From an uncultured Tolumonas sp. (GTDB lineage: Bacteria; Pseudomonadota; Gammaproteobacteria; Enterobacterales; Aeromonadaceae), in the NCBI RefSeq assembly GCF_963556105.2, contig NZ_OY829944.1, positions 1,523,501-1,587,500 on the forward strand: a DNA stretch of 64,000 bases, read 5' to 3'. Shown in pieces: positions 1 to 60,966 of this stretch; positions within the stretch are counted from its first letter, which is position 1, and the number at the start of each line of letters is the position of its first letter. Made by a program: the position numbers and the translations under genes. The notes beneath the pieces were generated by a model. It saw only the letters and a list, made by a program, of their open reading frames with translations. It was not told where the DNA came from and ran no database searches.

Positions 1-73
1 GCAGATAGCGAGCAGAAGGCTCTCACCCTGATACCTTTCTCAAATAGAGTCTGATATCAGGGCTAAACATACA
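1..73 (-). mobile_element. IS110-family element, partial third copy (transposase-upstream end)
   Basis: This stretch matches positions 11931-12003 of the complete element except for T instead of C at position 37. It is the non-coding end upstream of the transposase; the rest lies left of the window. It is followed by the AG dinucleotide (74-75) that also borders the other two copies, and then by the right half of a long attC. The one-base difference shows it is not a copy-paste duplicate of the other two. Confidence 0.9.
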
Positions 74-897: not shown

Positions 898-925
898 GCA
901 AGAATCTCTCTGGTGTTCATGCCAC

Positions 926-984
926 TCATAACTTCCAATTGTGGGGCGGTTGAAAACCGTCCCACACTAATTGTTTGTTAACTG
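926..984 (-). repeat. attC of c3
   Basis: Short attC with apex GGCGGTTGAAAACCGTCC, arms TCATAAC / GTTAACT. This exact attC version (left stem CCAATTGTGG, right stem CACTAATTG) occurs with every family C cassette. Confidence 0.9.
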
Positions 985-1003
985 GTAGTTGAGTTGAACT
1001 TGT

Positions 1004-1252
1004 TTATGGCTCGACGGGATTTTGCGAACCACCGTCGTTGTTGATAAACATATCTATGTTCGGCCATAACTTGAGTTCACAACAGAATTTACTATCTTCA
1101 CGACTCAAATAATGCGCAAATTTTGAATTTATGGCTGAACTTGCTTTCGCTGAAATTGAATTCAACGCAAATCTTGCTGTGCCCAGAAGTGCAGGGAGCG
1201 GCGTTGAAAATTTCGACAAACTGTCTACACCAGCGAAAAACAAAACACACAA
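1004..1252 (-). CDS. family C repeat cassette with 82-codon frame (c3)
   Basis: First of six copies of a short cassette whose only frame in the array direction is 82 codons, starting at TTG (residues CVLFFAGVDSLSK after the start). No Shine-Dalgarno sequence precedes it. The frame is open in all six copies, but the copies differ mainly by amino-acid-changing substitutions, so coding is doubtful. Treat this as a repeat unit that may encode a small hypothetical protein. Confidence 0.35.
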   Translation of the reverse strand: MCVLFFAGVDSLSKFSTPLPALLGTARFALNSISAKASSAINSKFAHYLSREDSKFCCELKLWPNIDMFINNDGGSQNPVEP

Positions 1253-3161: not shown

Positions 3162-3396
3162 GGCATGTCCTTGATTATGAAAGATATATACATCAATGAA
3201 ATAACGTAAAATTAGTTTAGTCATTATCGATACATTTTCTCCTGTTGGTTATATACCTTATGTTCAAAGATTAATCTTGTACACCTAAATTTTGATTCAT
3301 AGTATTAACTTTTGTTAAAGCGATGTGAGTAAATCTACCGTTTTTTATTATTCCATTCTAAGAGAAAAAGAAAGCATTTTTTAGTGACACAAAAAA

Positions 3397-3454
3397 GTCT
3401 AACTTCCAATTGTGGGGCGGTTGAAAACCGTCCCACACTAATTGTTTGTTAACT
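3397..3454 (-). repeat. attC of c7
   Basis: Family C type attC, apex GGCGGTTGAAAACCGTCC, arms GTCTAAC / GTTAACT. Confidence 0.9.
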
Positions 3455-3474
3455 GGTAGTTGAGTTGAACTTGT

Positions 3475-3723
3475 TTATGGCTCGACGGGATTTTGCGAAC
3501 CATCGTCGTTGTTGATAAACATTTCTATGTTCGGCCATAACTTGAGTTCACAACAGAATTTACTATCTTCACGACTCAAATAATGCGCAAATTTTGAATT
3601 TATGGCTGAACTTGCTTTCGCTGAAATTGAATTCAACGCAAATCTTGCTGTGCCCAGAAGTGCAGGGAGCGGCGTTGAAAATTTCGACAAACTGTCTACA
3701 CCAGCGAAAAACGAAACACACAA
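3475..3723 (-). CDS. family C repeat cassette with 82-codon frame (c7)
   Basis: Second copy of the family C cassette. It differs from the c3 copy at only a few positions (for example CVSFF instead of CVLFF and DD instead of GG near the C-terminus). The start codon is TTG with no ribosome site. Coding status is uncertain. Confidence 0.35.
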   Translation of the reverse strand: MCVSFFAGVDSLSKFSTPLPALLGTARFALNSISAKASSAINSKFAHYLSREDSKFCCELKLWPNIEMFINNDDGSQNPVEP

Positions 3724-3817: not shown

Positions 3818-4105
3818 TTACATCAGTTTTAATAATCGTTCACTTCGCCACACTCTGATGACTTGCACTTCATCTGCTTTCAGCAGATAAACAATACGGT
3901 AGGGCGGATGAATGAGTTCTCGGAGCGATGGAAGGCCATATTCAGGGACAATTCGACCCATCTGAGGATGTTCAGATAGATTTTCAATATGATTAAAAAC
4001 ATCATCAACATGTTTCTCCCTGATATGTTCAACACCTTCAAGTTTATAATGTTCTTTGATATCGATAAGATCTTCGTAAGCAGAATCGGTGATCGTAATT
4101 TTCAT
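3818..4105 (-). CDS. ParE/RelE-family toxin (c8)
   Basis: A 95-residue protein with the ParE/RelE fold signature: an N-terminal beta strand (MKITITDSAYEDL), two helices, then HPQMGRIVPEYGLPSLRELI, PYRIVYLL and VQVIRVWRSERLL. ParE members poison gyrase and RelE members cut mRNA; the sequence alone does not decide which. It is the second gene of a two-gene cassette and shares one base (TAATG) with the antitoxin gene, so the two are translationally coupled, antitoxin first. Confidence 0.88.
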   Translation of the reverse strand: MKITITDSAYEDLIDIKEHYKLEGVEHIREKHVDDVFNHIENLSEHPQMGRIVPEYGLPSLRELIHPPYRIVYLLKADEVQVIRVWRSERLLKLM

Positions 4106-4374
4106 TAGCGCAAACCCAGTTTCTTCTTGGCATCATCAAGAGACATTGTTCTGCCTTCTTGAACATCCGTAAGACCCTGAGCAATTGCTTTGAGAAAAGC
4201 GCATTCTTCTTCACGAGTTTCGTATTCAGCTAAGGACTGAACGACAGCAACACCACGACCTCTACTGGTAAGAAGAATAGGGCGTTGAGTTTCAACAGTT
4301 TGATTAACAATTTTGCCTGGGTTCACTTTGAGATCTGACAATGGAACCACATCTTCAGAGAATTTGACTTGCAT
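4105..4374 (-). CDS. Phd/YefM-family antitoxin (c8)
   Basis: An 89-residue Phd/YefM antitoxin: an N-terminal DNA-binding fold (VVPLSDLKVNPGKIVNQTVETQRPILLTSRGRG with the usual pi(l/v)lT..G..vaVv pattern), and a C-terminal part that would bind the toxin. It precedes the ParE-like toxin in the same cassette. By family rule it binds its own promoter and neutralises the toxin. Such toxin-antitoxin cassettes are known to stabilise large chromosomal integrons against loss of cassettes. Confidence 0.88.
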   Translation of the reverse strand: MQVKFSEDVVPLSDLKVNPGKIVNQTVETQRPILLTSRGRGVAVVQSLAEYETREEECAFLKAIAQGLTDVQEGRTMSLDDAKKKLGLR

Positions 4375-8858: not shown

Positions 8859-8936
8859 ATATAACTTTCAATTAAACGGCGGCACGCAGTGCCGTCCAGT
8901 GAGCGAATGCGAACGTGTTTGAATTGGTTGTTGTGT
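8859..8936 (-). repeat. attC of c13 (long form)
   Basis: Long-form attC, 78 bp, with apex GGCGGCACGCAGTGCCGTCC followed by the AG(C) segment that is the IS target in other copies. Arms ATATAAC / GTTGTGT; the cassette end at 9768 is ACATAAC, one mismatch to the right arm. Confidence 0.9.
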
Positions 8937-10758: not shown

Positions 10759-10803
10759 AGCTAACTTTTAGTTAAACGGCGGCACGTAGTGCCGTCCAGT
10801 GAG
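10759..10803 (-). repeat. attC of c15, left half (IS-interrupted)
   Basis: Left half of a long-form attC (arm AGCTAAC, stem TTTTAGTTAAACGGCGG, apex GGCACGTAGTGCC). It is interrupted after CCAGTGAG by the IS110-family element and resumes at 12004. Confidence 0.92.
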
Positions 10804-10818
10804 ATCCTATGTTGTTGA

Positions 10819-11781
10819 TCAAGCCGTTTTAGTTAAAAACGGGGATGAAAAACGATCTATTTTGAATTCTTCACCGCTTTGCCAGATAGCAAAAGCGATC
10901 CTGATCAGTTTACGTGCTAACGCAATAACGGCGCCGGCATAAGGTAAACGTTCTCGAAATTTATCAAGTAAAGGCTTAAATAAACCACGGCCAGCAGCGG
11001 CTGCTGCATTGTAAAGTAATCGACGCGCTTCGGAAGGGCCTCGCTTACTAAGTCGGCGTTTACCTTGTTTTTTCCCAGAGTCAGCAAACTTCAAATCCAT
11101 TCCTAAAAAACAAACTGCCTGATCACTGGAATGAAAGGGAACCCGGGAAAATAAACCAGCCAAATAAGCCGCAGTAAGAGGGCCAATACCGTAGATCCCA
11201 CGCATAGCCATCATTCGGTTGTAGTATTCATCACCTTGTTTCTTGCTGAGATGCAGGATCTGTTTTCCGATACTATCAATCAAACGTTGCATAGAAAGTA
11301 AGGCCGCAGCTAATTCAGTATCAACACCAGTCAAAGTTGATGTAGTCATCATCAGAGCATGCCTTATTTTAACTAAGGAGCTGCGACGCAGGAAAAGAGC
11401 ATGAATTTGTTCTTGTTCCTGACTCATGGGCAGCCACTCACGGAGGAGAGGTTGCTCCGCAGCCAAATAACGGGCAATGAGAAGAGCATCCCCGCGATCT
11501 GTTTTTGCCCGGCGACCGACTCCTTTGGCATAATAGTGTATGTCTTTGGGATTAAGCACATAGACTCGCATTCCGGCAGCAAAAGCGAGTTTGGCTAGCA
11601 GTAAATGATAACGTCCCGTCACTTCCATACCGATAATGGAAGCTTTAGGAATTTGTTCTAACCATTCAGAAATGGCCTCGATGGAATTATCAATATGAAG
11701 ATTGGAAGCGGAGCCATATTGATTAATATCAAGCCAGAGGCTGGACACATCAACGCCAAACAACACGAGATCAACTTGCAT
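10819..11781 (-). CDS. IS110-family DEDD transposase, copy 1
   Basis: A 320-residue transposase. The N-terminal RuvC-like domain shows D11, E53 (GMEVTGRY), D95 and D98 (KTDRGDA); the C-terminal Transposase_20 domain has GIGPLTAAYLAG, then FADSG with the likely nucleophile Ser235, and SKRGPSEARRLLYNAA. The start at 11781 is chosen for the GGGGG ribosome site four bases upstream; a longer frame to 11826 has none. The protein is identical to the second copy. It would work as a recombinase guided by the RNA from the adjoining end. Confidence 0.95.
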   Translation of the reverse strand: MQVDLVLFGVDVSSLWLDINQYGSASNLHIDNSIEAISEWLEQIPKASIIGMEVTGRYHLLLAKLAFAAGMRVYVLNPKDIHYYAKGVGRRAKTDRGDALLIARYLAAEQPLLREWLPMSQEQEQIHALFLRRSSLVKIRHALMMTTSTLTGVDTELAAALLSMQRLIDSIGKQILHLSKKQGDEYYNRMMAMRGIYGIGPLTAAYLAGLFSRVPFHSSDQAVCFLGMDLKFADSGKKQGKRRLSKRGPSEARRLLYNAAAAAGRGLFKPLLDKFRERLPYAGAVIALARKLIRIAFAIWQSGEEFKIDRFSSPFLTKTA

Positions 11782-11826
11782 AAATCCCCCTGTATTGCTT
11801 AGATTGAACAAATCAGGGTGGCACAT

Positions 11827-12003
11827 GTCTGACGTTAGCTTGCGAATAAATCGGCTTTACGAAGCCAGATCCCTCATAGACGTTCTCACATGTGATGGAG
11901 CATTTCTCAGTCAGTCTGTCCAGGCTAGTGGCAGATAGCGAGCAGAAGGCTCTCACCCTGATACCTTCCTCAAATAGAGTCTGATATCAGGGCTAAACAT
12001 ACA
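11827..12003 (-). ncRNA. putative bridge/seek RNA of the IS110 element, copy 1
   Basis: This is the only sizeable non-coding part of the element. On the transposase strand it can form an 8-bp stem (CCCTGATA/TATCAGGG, plus strand 11956-11963 with 11985-11992) and a stem GGCTT/AAGCC (11853-11866). That second stem is bracketed by GGATCT (11867-11872), equal to the left donor end with its CT core, and CGCAAG (11839-11844), sharing CAAG with the right donor end. Segments CUCGCU (11937-11942) and ACUGAG (11906-11911) nearly match the two sides of the attC target. The order fits known bridge RNAs; pairing is my inference by eye. Confidence 0.5.
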
Positions 12004-12038
12004 AGCGAATGCGAACGTGTTTGAACTTTTTGTTATGC
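12004..12038 (-). repeat. attC of c15, right half
   Basis: Resumes the interrupted long attC and ends in GTTATGC, complementary to the cassette end GCATAAC at 13042. Confidence 0.92.
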
Positions 12039-26749: not shown

Positions 26750-26764
26750 ATCCTATGTTGTTGA

Positions 26765-27727
26765 TCAAGCCGTTTTAGTTAAAAACGGGGATGAAAAACG
26801 ATCTATTTTGAATTCTTCACCGCTTTGCCAGATAGCAAAAGCGATCCTGATCAGTTTACGTGCTAACGCAATAACGGCGCCGGCATAAGGTAAACGTTCT
26901 CGAAATTTATCAAGTAAAGGCTTAAATAAACCACGGCCAGCAGCGGCTGCTGCATTGTAAAGTAATCGACGCGCTTCGGAAGGGCCTCGCTTACTAAGTC
27001 GGCGTTTACCTTGTTTTTTCCCAGAGTCAGCAAACTTCAAATCCATTCCTAAAAAACAAACTGCCTGATCACTGGAATGAAAGGGAACCCGGGAAAATAA
27101 ACCAGCCAAATAAGCCGCAGTAAGAGGGCCAATACCGTAGATCCCACGCATAGCCATCATTCGGTTGTAGTATTCATCACCTTGTTTCTTGCTGAGATGC
27201 AGGATCTGTTTTCCGATACTATCAATCAAACGTTGCATAGAAAGTAAGGCCGCAGCTAATTCAGTATCAACACCAGTCAAAGTTGATGTAGTCATCATCA
27301 GAGCATGCCTTATTTTAACTAAGGAGCTGCGACGCAGGAAAAGAGCATGAATTTGTTCTTGTTCCTGACTCATGGGCAGCCACTCACGGAGGAGAGGTTG
27401 CTCCGCAGCCAAATAACGGGCAATGAGAAGAGCATCCCCGCGATCTGTTTTTGCCCGGCGACCGACTCCTTTGGCATAATAGTGTATGTCTTTGGGATTA
27501 AGCACATAGACTCGCATTCCGGCAGCAAAAGCGAGTTTGGCTAGCAGTAAATGATAACGTCCCGTCACTTCCATACCGATAATGGAAGCTTTAGGAATTT
27601 GTTCTAACCATTCAGAAATGGCCTCGATGGAATTATCAATATGAAGATTGGAAGCGGAGCCATATTGATTAATATCAAGCCAGAGGCTGGACACATCAAC
27701 GCCAAACAACACGAGATCAACTTGCAT
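26765..27727 (-). CDS. IS110-family DEDD transposase, copy 2
   Basis: A 320-residue protein identical to the transposase at 10819-11781, with D11, E53, D95, D98 and Ser235 all present, so it should be active. The start codon at 27727 again follows GGGGGATTT. Confidence 0.95.
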   Translation of the reverse strand: MQVDLVLFGVDVSSLWLDINQYGSASNLHIDNSIEAISEWLEQIPKASIIGMEVTGRYHLLLAKLAFAAGMRVYVLNPKDIHYYAKGVGRRAKTDRGDALLIARYLAAEQPLLREWLPMSQEQEQIHALFLRRSSLVKIRHALMMTTSTLTGVDTELAAALLSMQRLIDSIGKQILHLSKKQGDEYYNRMMAMRGIYGIGPLTAAYLAGLFSRVPFHSSDQAVCFLGMDLKFADSGKKQGKRRLSKRGPSEARRLLYNAAAAAGRGLFKPLLDKFRERLPYAGAVIALARKLIRIAFAIWQSGEEFKIDRFSSPFLTKTA

Positions 27728-27772
27728 AAATCCCCCTGTATTGCTTAGATTGAACAAATCAGGGTGGCACAT

Positions 27773-27949
27773 GTCTGACGTTAGCTTGCGAATAAATCGG
27801 CTTTACGAAGCCAGATCCCTCATAGACGTTCTCACATGTGATGGAGCATTTCTCAGTCAGTCTGTCCAGGCTAGTGGCAGATAGCGAGCAGAAGGCTCTC
27901 ACCCTGATACCTTCCTCAAATAGAGTCTGATATCAGGGCTAAACATACA
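27773..27949 (-). ncRNA. putative bridge/seek RNA of the IS110 element, copy 2
   Basis: Same structured end as in copy 1: the CCCTGATA/TATCAGGG stem, the GGCTT/AAGCC stem and the GGATCT donor-guide candidate are all present. The target side here reads GTTGCT|CACTGG on the transposase strand (copy 1: TTCGCT|CACTGG), so guide pairing must tolerate variation on the left side. Confidence 0.5.
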
Positions 27950-35833: not shown

Positions 35834-35852
35834 AGTAGACCTCTCTATTAGG

Positions 35853-35911
35853 GCATAACTTCCAATTGTGGGGCGGTTGAAAACCGTCCCACACTAATTG
35901 TTTGTTAACTG
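35853..35911 (-). repeat. attC of c45
   Basis: Family C type attC, apex GGCGGTTGAAAACCGTCC, arms GCATAAC / GTTAACT. Confidence 0.92.
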
Positions 35912-35930
35912 GTAGTTGAGTTGAACTTGT

Positions 35931-36179
35931 TTATGGCTCGACGAGATTTTGCGAACCACCGTCGTTGTTGATAAACATTTCTATGTTCGGCCATAACTTG
36001 AGTTCACAACAGAATTTACTATCTTCACGACTCAAATAATGCGCAAAATTTGAATTTATGGCTGAACTTGCTTTCGCTGAAATTGAATTCAACGCAAATC
36101 TTGCTGTGCCCAGAAGTGCAGGGAGCGGCGTTGAAAATTTCGACAAACTGTCTACGCCAGCGAAAAACAAAACACACAA
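35931..36179 (-). CDS. family C repeat cassette with 82-codon frame (c45)
   Basis: Third family C copy; the frame ends GGSQNLVEP where other copies have QNPVEP. TTG start, no ribosome site. Coding doubtful. Confidence 0.35.
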   Translation of the reverse strand: MCVLFFAGVDSLSKFSTPLPALLGTARFALNSISAKASSAINSNFAHYLSREDSKFCCELKLWPNIEMFINNDGGSQNLVEP

Positions 36180-46763: not shown

Positions 46764-46789
46764 AGTAGCATTCCTTGGTGATATTTAGC

Positions 46790-46847
46790 ACATAACTTCC
46801 AATTGTGGGGCGGTTGAAAACCGTCCCACACTAATTGTTTGTTAACT
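46790..46847 (-). repeat. attC of c59
   Basis: Family C type attC, apex GGCGGTTGAAAACCGTCC, arms ACATAAC / GTTAACT. Confidence 0.92.
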
Positions 46848-46867
46848 GGTAGTTGAGTTGAACTTGT

Positions 46868-47116
46868 TTATGGCGCGACAGGATTTTGCGAACCATCGTC
46901 GTTGTTGATAAACATTTCTGTGTTCGGCCGTAACTTGAGTTCACAACAGGATTTACTATCTTCACGACTCAAATAATGCGCAAATTTTGAATTTATGGCT
47001 GAACTTGCTTTCGTTGAAATTGAATTCAACGCAAATCTTGCTGTACCCAGAAGTGCAAGGAGCGGCGCTGAAAATTTCGACAAACTGTCTATGCCAGCGA
47101 AAAACAAAACACACAA
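46868..47116 (-). CDS. family C repeat cassette with 82-codon frame (c59)
   Basis: Fourth family C copy and, with c80, part of a diverged subgroup (FAGIDSLSKFSAPL, NSISTKASS, KSCCELKL, NPVAP). The frame stays open despite about ten changes. Coding remains unproven. Confidence 0.35.
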   Translation of the reverse strand: MCVLFFAGIDSLSKFSAPLLALLGTARFALNSISTKASSAINSKFAHYLSREDSKSCCELKLRPNTEMFINNDDGSQNPVAP

Positions 47117-47649: not shown

Positions 47650-48052
47650 ATGAACAAAGAAAAATATAATCATCATCAACAACAAAACTGGCTAAGTGGA
47701 ACCACAGGCTTCAATGTTGCAACTGTGCCAGCTTTAAACCACCACTTGGAATTACGCACTGGCAATATTGATGCAGCGAAATTGGCTGAAACATCGACTG
47801 ACTTATTCAGTGAGCAGGAGTGGTTGTTAAAAACACAGCGCCCCGATGATGAGCCGCTCAGGCGTTATACTCTGACAATGCCGATGGTTGCCGACACGTA
47901 ACCCGTGCAGGCTTTCAGTTTGCCATTTCACGTGAATTCATGTGTTGCGCGAGGCAACCCACTCGAAGGTGGTGAACCGCTAACACCACTGGACCATCTG
48001 CACAGCCGCTTTAGGGCTGGAATTCGCAGCAAACAATGAAGCCGCTTTTATT
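47650..48052. repeat. repeat cassette, family A (c61)
   Basis: Family A copy in which the plus-strand frame from 47650 remains open for 83 codons (MNKEKYNHHQQQNWLSGTTG, LAETSTDLFSEQEWLLKTQR). It aligns in frame with the c42 copy; the two share TDLFxExEWLLKTQRPDDEP. Confidence 0.75.
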
Positions 48053-48110
48053 ACCTAACTTCCAATTGTGGGGCGGTTGAAAACCGTCCCACACTAATTG
48101 TTTGTTAACT
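48053..48110 (-). repeat. attC of c62
   Basis: Family C type attC, apex GGCGGTTGAAAACCGTCC, arms ACCTAAC / GTTAACT. Confidence 0.92.
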
Positions 48111-48130
48111 GGTAGTTGAGTTGAACTTGT

Positions 48131-48379
48131 TTATGGCTCGACGGGATTTTGCGAACCACCGTCGTTGTTGATAAACATATCTATGTTCGGCCATAACTTG
48201 AGTTCACAACAGAATTTACTATCTTCACGACTCAAATAATGCGCAAATTTTGAATTTATGGCTGAACTTGTTTTCGCTGAAATTGAATTCAACGCAAATC
48301 TTGCAGTGCCCAGAAGTGCAGGGAGCGGCGTTGAAAATTTCGACAAACTGTCTACACCAGCGAAAAACAAAACACACAA
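48131..48379 (-). CDS. family C repeat cassette with 82-codon frame (c62)
   Basis: Fifth family C copy, close to the c3 copy (NIDMFINNDGG). TTG start without ribosome site. Confidence 0.35.
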   Translation of the reverse strand: MCVLFFAGVDSLSKFSTPLPALLGTARFALNSISAKTSSAINSKFAHYLSREDSKFCCELKLWPNIDMFINNDGGSQNPVEP

Positions 48380-60350: not shown

Positions 60351-60639
60351 AGTATTGAAAAAATGAACCCGATTTTATCTCGGAAGTAACGAGTGGTTCT
60401 CGGGCTAGCGTTCAACACTGTAAACAGAAAAAATGGTTGTAAGGAATTACCCACGACGGCGTTGATGTGCAGAAGCGCATAATCGCCACGCCAAATTTGC
60501 TGAAGCTCACGACTAACTTTGTTTGGCGTATTATGAGCGGGCACCACGCGGCGATAGTGAGCTGTAGATAACATAGGACTTGCAGCTAACACCGCTTTAA
60601 AACGTGAATTCCCCGCAAAACTTTCAGCAAATTAAAACT
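60351..60639 (-). repeat. ORF-less repeat cassette, family B (c79)
   Basis: Family B copy, with the shared blocks TGGTTGTAAGGAATTACC and TTTGGCGTATTATGAGCGGG. Frames are shifted relative to c34 and c35. Confidence 0.8.
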
Positions 60640-60697
60640 GCATAACTTCCAATTGTGGGGCGGTTGAAAACCGTCCCACACTAATTGTTTGTTAACT
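60640..60697 (-). repeat. attC of c80
   Basis: Family C type attC, apex GGCGGTTGAAAACCGTCC, arms GCATAAC / GTTAACT. Confidence 0.92.
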
Positions 60698-60717
60698 GGT
60701 AGTTGAGTTGAACTTGT

Positions 60718-60966
60718 TTATGGTGCGACAGGATTTTGCGAACCACCGTCGTTGTTGATAAACATTTCTGTGTTCGGCCATAACTTGAGTTCACAACAGG
60801 ATTTACTATCTTCATGACTCAAATAATGCGCAAATTTTGAATTTATGGCTGAACTTGCTTTCGTTGAAATTGAATTCAACGCAAATCTTGCTGTACCCAG
60901 AAGTGCAGGGAGCGGCGCTGAAAATTTCGACAAACTGTCTATGCCAGCGAAAAACAAAACACACAA
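60718..60966 (-). CDS. family C repeat cassette with 82-codon frame (c80)
   Basis: Sixth family C copy, of the same subgroup as c59 (FAGIDSLSKFSAPL, NPVAP), with YLSHEDSKS where others have YLSREDSK. TTG start, no ribosome site. Confidence 0.35.
   Translation of the reverse strand: MCVLFFAGIDSLSKFSAPLPALLGTARFALNSISTKASSAINSKFAHYLSHEDSKSCCELKLWPNTEMFINNDGGSQNPVAP

What the first reader, a model, noticed from the sequence alone, without database searches (positions are those of the whole stretch)
10804..12003. IS110-family element that targets long attC sites, with a likely bridge RNA
Two full copies and a third partial copy are inserted at exactly the same point (CCAGTG-AG-C) and in the same orientation of long-form attC sites, each flanked by the AG/CT core. 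The only non-coding end shows stems and an ordered set of guide candidates: GGATCT equals the left donor end with core, CGCAAG shares CAAG with the right donor, and CUCGCU and ACUGAG nearly match the two target sides. IS1111-attC elements are known to target cassettes; an RNA-guided explanation for attC targeting can be read from this copy.
Basis: partly seen in the sequence, partly recalled or inferred. Interest (0 to 1): 0.85.

Follow-up and report, generated by a model that had tools for sequence, protein, structure and literature searches.

The report
RNA-guided IS110 element inside cassette sites
A small jumping gene of the RNA-guided IS110 kind has inserted five times in one genome, always at the same spot inside the recombination sites of gene cassettes; it carries a recognisable guide RNA, but that RNA matches its target less well than in its relatives.

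Summary
Window 10804-12003 is a full 1.2-kb IS110 element. The genome holds five full copies, all at CCAGTG-AG-C inside long attC sites, in one orientation, with an AG/CT core on both sides. It is not an IS1111-attC element: the non-coding region is upstream of the transposase, the sub-terminal repeat is only 6 bp, and the family profile matches IS621/ISCro4 over nearly its whole length. A covariance model built from 30 relatives without this element finds its non-coding end at 63.3 bits (E 1.9e-16). Across 31 non-redundant elements (this one included) guides at fixed positions track the insertion sites far above 2000 shuffles, so a bridge RNA is well supported. The left donor guide fits this element's own end, and circle joining would create TTGATC-17-TATGTT. 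The weak point is the target guide: at each occupied attC it matches 3 of 7 left and 3 of 5 right non-core bases, tied lowest of 31, so it explains attC choice only in part. RNA-guided attC targeting is already published for IS1111 elements (ISKpn4, ISPst6). Apparently new: an IS110-type lineage doing it, inside attC, with a right guide shared with a repeat-targeting relative.

The parts
10804..12003 (-). IS110-type insertion sequence, 1200 bp plus one copy of the CT core
   Evidence: five-copy comparison and junctions
10819..11781 (-). transposase, 320 aa (the start at 11826 is not supported by relatives)
   Evidence: Pfam PF01548 + PF02371; NF033542 'IS110 family RNA-guided transposase' E 2.9e-46; alignment A1; PDB ISCro4/IS621 with the A1 profile
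11782..12003 (-). long upstream non-coding end (LE) that encodes the bridge RNA
11832..11965 (-). bridge RNA core, match to model R1 (63.3 bits)
   Evidence: exactly five in the genome
11956..11992 (-). predicted 5' stem-loop of the bridge RNA
   Evidence: the fold of 11832-11992 as a whole is not better than shuffles, z -0.73
11937..11945 (-). left target guide CUGCUCGCU (with core CU)
   Evidence: position set by relatives
11906..11913 (-). right target guide UGACUGAG (with core AG); same letters in the closest relative L047
11867..11873 (-). left donor guide GGGAUCU, matches own right end GGATCT
11839..11843 (-). right donor guide GCAAG, shares CAAG with own left end
   Evidence: sequence; CAAG invariant in A2
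10817..10822 (-). TTGATC, -35 half of the predicted circle-junction promoter
11996..12001 (-). TATGTT, -10 half of the predicted circle-junction promoter and left copy of the 6-bp sub-terminal repeat
10762..10803 (+). left part (42 nt) of the interrupted attC
12004..12035 (+). second AG core and right part (30 nt) of the interrupted attC
26750..27949 (-). second full copy; its attC halves are of two different attC types (probable chimera)
1..73 (-). end of a third full copy that begins outside the window
8862..8933 (+). uninterrupted long attC with the same letters around the insertion point as the one at 10762

Best explanation
This is an IS110-group (IS621-like) insertion sequence that moves by bridge-RNA-guided recombination and in this genome uses the interior of long attC sites as its target. 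Inferred cycle: the transposase excises the element as a circle; joining right and left ends creates a promoter (TTGATC-17-TATGTT) that transcribes the upstream bridge RNA and then the transposase; the donor loop of the RNA pairs with the joined ends around the CT core; the target loop pairs with attC around the CT of GCT-CACTGG; strand exchange at CT inserts the circle without extra duplication. Shown by sequence: ends, core, five insertions at one point, RNA family membership, guide positions, left donor match, junction promoter letters. Inferred: expression, circle formation, RNA binding, and that the partial target pairing is what picks attC.
For: Five of five copies are at one attC point and orientation. 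Protein families, and homology of the A1 profile to IS621/ISCro4 over positions 3-310 of 315. R1, built from 30 relatives without this element, hits it at 63.3 bits and finds only the five copies in 4 Mb. At fixed positions LTG matches 5.29/7 and RTG 4.55/5 over 31 non-redundant elements (this one included) against shuffled means 2.87 and 2.60; none of 2000 shuffles reaches either. The 4 donor bases left of the core recur in the donor loop in 37 of 37 NCR types, across four donor variants (read from its table; the search pattern fixed some of those letters). The -35 score at spacer 17 is 4.08/6 in 37 elements against 0.03-2.76 at 31 other spacings. All five occupied sites score 6/12 with the guides, while 11 of 35 empty GTCCAGTGAGC sites score only 4.
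Against: The element's own target guides match its five sites at only 3/7 and 3/5 outside the core, tied lowest (6 of 12, with L041) of 31 elements and close to the shuffled mean; 258 of 6668 CT positions in the window do as well. Occupied against empty attC by guide score: permutation p 0.18, and 24 of 35 empty sites score as well or better. Gapped pairing of the left guide is not significant (p 0.085-0.22). The predicted RNA fold is no better than shuffles (z -0.73, 43 of 200), and the consensus fold of the relatives is modest (-9.09 kcal/mol, 18 pairs, 9 with changes on both sides). The full 6-nt donor-left word with core occurs in the NCR in only 17 of 37 types. A site with all 14 guided bases lies empty at C2:502140. 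No Rfam family matched above gathering score, nor a bridge-RNA-like one at E up to 1.
Confidence: 0.75

Rival explanations
1. The bridge RNA guides only in part: attC is chosen mainly by something else (folded attC structure, protein-DNA contacts, or accessibility of the array), and the target loop contributes little beyond GCTCA around the core.
For: Guide match no better than many other CT sites; a 14/14 guided site in the genome is empty; in some relatives one side is also barely matched, e.g. L039 left 2/7 and L077 right 2/5.
Against: In the family as a whole the guides track the target strongly; occupied attC sites all fall in the better-matching class, though not significantly. Folded as single-stranded DNA, four attC strands were not clearly more stable than shuffles (z -0.8 to -1.3).
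Confidence: 0.2
2. It is a member of the known IS1111-attC group.
For: Inserted in attC sites in a fixed orientation.
Against: Non-coding region upstream and right end of 15 nt; sub-terminal repeat 6 bp; insertion after nt 42 of a 72-nt attC (52 of 81 for one copy), not at one end; homology of the family profile to IS621/ISCro4 over nearly the whole length. No tree with IS1111 transposases was built.
Confidence: 0.04
3. The copies were spread by cassette duplication or homologous recombination after one chance insertion, so there is no real target preference.
For: The copy at 26750 sits between two attC halves that occur together in 0 of 43 intact long attC sites, which points to recombination between copies.
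Against: The other four copies have different outer flanks, and one of them has nine exact empty counterparts; the relatives insert at precise sites too.
Confidence: 0.06

Closest known systems
IS621 and ISCro4 (IS110 group, bridge RNA in the left end)
   Same: Both Pfam domains and homology over nearly the whole length, CT core, RNA upstream of the transposase, order of the four guides, ATA/TAT beside the core (PMC11208160, passages).
   Different: Targets attC rather than REP (IS621 target from PMC11208160, passages); 6-bp sub-terminal repeat rather than 2-3 bp; own target guides fit poorly. For ISCro4 only the sequence match was seen.
IS1111-attC elements (ISKpn4, ISPst6, ISPa25, ISPa21)
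   Same: Insert in attC sites; RNA-guided (seekRNA shown for ISKpn4 and ISPst6 in PMC11187229).
   Different: Their RNA is downstream of the transposase, IS1111 elements have longer sub-terminal repeats, and ISKpn4/ISPst6 use one end of attC; this one uses the interior of long attC.
ISEc21 (IS110 group, PMC11187229)
   Same: Upstream NCR, bottom-strand guide before top-strand guide, circle-junction promoter.
   Different: Targets a transposase gene of IS3 elements.
Unnamed relatives found here (L037-L126), closest Endozoicomonas L047 at 43% identity
   Same: Right end CATAGRAYCT-like and left end CTTGTATGKT recognised in 72 of 90 relatives' loci, same RNA model; L047 has the same right target guide.
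   Different: They insert at CT-CCCAC/CT-CCTAC sites, at CTTCGACARGCT-CAG repeats and at other sites. I did not test them systematically for attC; I saw none by eye.

Membership tests
IS110 group (IS621-like bridge-RNA elements) | DEDD N-terminal domain and Tnp_20 C-terminal domain with the conserved serine | tested here: met
   in A1 (10 sequences) D11, E53, D95, D98, S235 and G236 are invariant; which of them are catalytic is recalled
IS110 group (IS621-like bridge-RNA elements) | Long left end upstream of the transposase, short right end | tested here: met
   222 nt upstream, 15 nt downstream
IS110 group (IS621-like bridge-RNA elements) | Structured RNA in the left end with target loop then donor loop | tested here: met
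   model R1 hit 63.3 bits, rough E 1.9e-16
IS110 group (IS621-like bridge-RNA elements) | Core dinucleotide shared by target and donor | tested here: met
   CT/AG on both sides of all five copies
IS110 group (IS621-like bridge-RNA elements) | Donor guide complementary to own ends | tested here: met
   left side GGATCT, following the donor variants in the family; right side only CAAG
IS110 group (IS621-like bridge-RNA elements) | Target guides complementary to the insertion site | tested here: inconclusive
   family yes; this element 3/7 and 3/5
IS110 group (IS621-like bridge-RNA elements) | Circular intermediate and RNA-bound transposase | not testable with these tools
   only the junction promoter letters were tested
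IS1111-attC group | Non-coding region downstream of the transposase | tested here: not met
IS1111-attC group | Sub-terminal inverted repeats of about 11-13 bp | tested here: not met
   6 bp TATGTT
IS1111-attC group | Insertion at one end of attC | tested here: not met
   after nt 42 of 71-72, or 52 of 81
attC sites of an integron cassette array | Many co-oriented sites with complementary halves and TTGTTA-type ends between short genes | tested here: met
   a loose pattern gives 93 hits on + and 11 on - in the window, the 11 showing its background; no integrase above cut-off on the array's contig

The most novel reading that the evidence does not exclude
Natural retargeting caught half-way: an IS110 lineage whose relative L047 uses the dispersed repeat TTCGACARG-CT-CAGTG has kept the right guide (UGACUGAG) and moved onto attC, whose TTCGNNNNG-CT-CACTG agrees with that repeat in register at 9 of 14 non-core bases for four copies (7 of 14 for the fifth), with a diverged left guide that does not yet fit well. 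If so, near-cognate pairing is enough for repeated precise transposition, and attC targeting arose independently in the IS110 and IS1111 groups.
Probability: 0.35. Interest if true: 0.65.

Novelty: new variant of a known kind. Interest (0 to 1): 0.5.

Why it matters
attC targeting was described for IS1111-type elements with a downstream RNA. An IS110-type element with an upstream RNA that uses the interior of attC would show that the same recombination sites have been invaded twice by RNA-guided elements of different build. Each insertion splits an attC by 1.2 kb, so it probably freezes that cassette boundary (inferred), and one copy seems to have taken part in recombination between attC sites. 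The poor target-guide fit is also a natural test of how much pairing a bridge RNA needs.

Tried and rejected
Rfam at gathering score and at E up to 1 over parts of the window gave no bridge-RNA family. Close relatives were sought and not found: genome contigs and viral contigs with the single protein, own genome plus 60 relatives (among hits in other genomes over most of the protein the best identity is 31%; a few short stretches reach 36%), 394 order genomes at E 1e-40 (own only), plasmids and phages (at most 34% in the rows listed), viral contigs with A1. Relatives of 35-43% came only from class/phylum samples and the A1 scan (which kept the best 80 of 264). A perfect guided site in the genome was followed up; by eye its sequence looks like coding DNA (no gene call), so I treat it as chance. 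Gapped guide pairing was tried and is not significant. Whether occupied attC sites fit the guides better than empty ones was tried: same direction, p 0.18. Whether the relative's repeat is enriched in the window was tried: 9 matches with up to 3 mismatches against 6.4 expected. Folding of relatives' joined target flanks gave no simple common rule, and folding of attC as DNA was unremarkable. The five-genome RNA search served only to read the targets of the CTTCGACA group.

Rows dropped: of 90 relatives' loci, five are the same places fetched twice (L037=L078, L038=L060, L039=L084, L045=L055, L046=L062; seen), so 85 places. With this element 91 rows were examined and 73 had both ends recognised by my pattern, 69 of them distinct places. 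Two with short right flanks and eight without the hairpin pattern were left out of the fixed-position test, leaving 63, of which 31 are non-redundant by NCR; the repeats fall out at that step. L047 was not in that test because its right end, CATAGAGCCT and further downstream, was not recognised.

Full report
WHAT IS THERE. Window 10804-12003 (- strand) holds a 1200-bp element bounded by AG at 10802-10803 and 12004-12005. It encodes one 320-aa protein (ATG 11781, stop 10819) with both IS110 domains (NF033542 'IS110 family RNA-guided transposase', E 2.9e-46). The longer start at 11826 is not supported by the relatives in A1, most of which begin close to the same point. The 222 nt upstream of the gene is the only long non-coding part; the right end is 15 nt.

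COPIES AND SITES. The genome has five full copies, all between C1:1447599 and C1:1551452. Four are identical; the fifth differs at 6 positions, none in a guide. All five interrupt a long attC at CCAGTG-AG-C in the same orientation, and the end/target 18-mer occurs exactly five times without mismatch. GTCCAGTGAGC occurs 36 times in the genome, 35 of them in the array and all on the + strand. The GTCCAGTGAA variant, which lacks the CT core, is intact at seven array sites and none of the five copies lies in one; with so few sites this proves little. The insertion point is after nt 42 of a 71-72 nt attC in four copies and after nt 52 of 81 in the fifth. Only the fifth (the copy at the window start) has letter-for-letter empty counterparts, nine of them among 43 intact long attC sites; the other four have none. 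The copy at 26750 has a left attC half of the TTTAATTAAACGG type and a right half of the GGCGTTGAACGCC type; that right half goes with the CAAG type of left half in 14 of 14 intact sites and never with another, so this copy probably arose by recombination between copies. The other four have different outer flanks, so I count at least four independent insertions.

FAMILY. No near relative was found in 60 relatives, 394 order genomes, plasmids, phages or viral contigs. The class and phylum samples gave ten loci of 36-41%, and a scan with their alignment A1 gave 80 loci of 35-43%, the best of 264; five of these are places already held. In 73 of 91 rows examined (69 distinct places) my patterns found a right end of the CATAGRAYCT kind (GGAACT in one group) after the stop codon and a left end CTTGTATGKT roughly 200-300 nt before the start. 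The sub-terminal repeat TATGKT... runs 4-7 bp, and its variable base agrees at both ends in 34 of 37 NCR types. The A1 profile finds ISCro4 (9t56) and IS621 (8wt6) over positions 3-310 of 315 at E 5.9e-47 and 3.4e-45.

BRIDGE RNA. In relatives the upstream region aligns as a target loop GGGGTGGAGGGAC-[left guide]-UCUG...CAGAC-[right guide]-...CCCACCCC followed by a donor loop; the consensus fold is modest, 18 pairs of which 9 show changes on both sides. With guides read at fixed positions, 31 non-redundant elements (this one included) match their own targets at 5.29 of 7 (left) and 4.55 of 5 (right) non-core bases, against 2.87 (sd 0.21) and 2.60 (sd 0.19) when targets are dealt out anew; the largest of 2000 shuffles were 3.61 and 3.32. 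Two guide offsets on the left and three on the right were allowed in both. A looser test on 36 elements agrees (7.28 and 7.39 of 9 against 6.30 and 6.52, 200 shuffles). The model R1 was built from 30 relatives without this element; it finds 11832-11965 at 63.3 bits, the best other hit in the window being 7.1 apart from the second copy, and only the five copies in the genome. The four donor bases left of the core (GAAT, GGAT, GAAC or GGAA) recur in the donor loop in 37 of 37 NCR types, this element's GGAT included; I read this from the table, whose pattern fixed some of these letters. The full 6-nt word with core is found in 17 of 37. Joining right and left end puts a -35-like TTGNNN exactly 17 nt before TATGKT in most elements: mean 4.08 of 6 in 37 against 0.03-2.76 at 31 other spacings; here TTGATC-17-TATGTT. 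This agrees with the junction promoters described for ISEc11 and ISEc21 (PMC11187229, section 12 and passages read).

THE WEAK POINT. This element's guides are CUGCUCG-CU and GACUG-AG. The predicted target is CTGCTCG-CT-CAGTC; the real ones are GCATTCG, CGCTTTG or CGCGTTG-CT-CACTG, that is 3/7 and 3/5 at each site, tied with L041 for the lowest total of the 31. Such a score is in the best 3.9% of CT positions in the window, but 258 of 6668 reach it. Nearest the core the fit is better (5 of 5 at one site, 4 of 5 at the others). All five occupied attC sites score 6; of 35 empty ones 24 score 6 or 7 and 11 score 4, p 0.18. So RNA guidance of the family is well supported, and guidance of this element to attC by these letters is plausible but not shown.

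A POSSIBLE ORIGIN. The closest relative, L047 (Endozoicomonas arenosclerae, 43%), has the same right guide letters UGACUGAG. Its genome shows ten RNA matches, and all ten follow CTTCGACA(A/G/C)GCT (two share the same left flank). In the one place where the right end is held, CAGTGCGAACGG follows. In register this repeat and the attC target share TTCG....G-CT-CA.TG: 9 of 14 non-core bases for four copies and 7 of 14 for one (binomial 0.002 and 0.04 with equal base frequencies, not corrected for the choice of relative). I read this as possible retargeting by near-cognate pairing.

LITERATURE. From PMC11187229 I read the abstract, sections 12 and 13 and passages; from PMC11208160, PMC9229058, PMC11616780 and PMC11089894 passages only. 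Tetu and Holmes 2008 was not held; Post and Hall 2009 was not looked up. RNA-guided attC targeting is thus already shown for IS1111 elements. PMC11616780 writes in its abstract that 'IS110' disrupted attC sites, but its text names ISPa21 of the IS1111 group. My searches listed no report that I recognised as an IS110-type element with upstream RNA in attC; most of the papers listed were not opened. A Shewanella survey looked for IS in attC and saw none (PMC9229058). The library is open-access only, so this is no proof of novelty. Catalytic roles of residues are recalled.

VERDICT. Observation confirmed and enlarged. The IS1111 link is wrong, and the target-guide argument is the least secure part.

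Noticed in passing
G000 C1:1447599-1600480 and C2:1010889-1011836: The only integron integrase above cut-off (444.8 bits) is on another contig, with no cassette array around it by a loose pattern (L135, hits at background level); the 150-kb array's contig has no integrase above cut-off, so it looks like an orphan array (CALIN).
   Followed up: partly
26750-27949 and its flanks: This copy joins two attC half-types found together in 0 of 43 intact long attC sites, a likely trace of recombination between IS copies.
   Followed up: partly
L047, L141, L143-L151: Ten places of a relative in one Endozoicomonas genome, all after CTTCGACA(A/G/C)GCT, with a left guide that fits only with a one-base slip (by eye).
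   Followed up: partly
L077, L081-L083, L092, L106, L107, L109-L111, L113: Many copies in one Burkholderiales bin; most share the left target TGCAGGCT (L109 and L111 vary) while the right flank varies beyond CTA: in this branch the left guide alone may suffice.
   Followed up: no
L052-L069, L104-L126 among others: Many relatives insert at CT-CCCAC or CT-CCTAC (Methyloversatilis, Pseudomonas, Alcanivorax and others), often beside a GC-rich self-complementary left flank (by eye), so the subfamily may favour dispersed palindromic repeats.
   Followed up: partly
G000 C1 and C2, nine places: A different IS110-family gene in nine places at about 25 bits, none inside the array; target not examined.
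   Followed up: no
window 920-1219, 3391-3690, 35847-36146, 46784-47083, 48047-48346, 60634-60933: One 300-nt repeat occurs six times in the array at 94-100% identity to the reference copy, probably a duplicated cassette.
   Followed up: no
window 3818-4374: Two small adjacent reading frames that look like a toxin-antitoxin pair (ParE/Phd-like by eye, no search made), a common kind of cassette.
   Followed up: no
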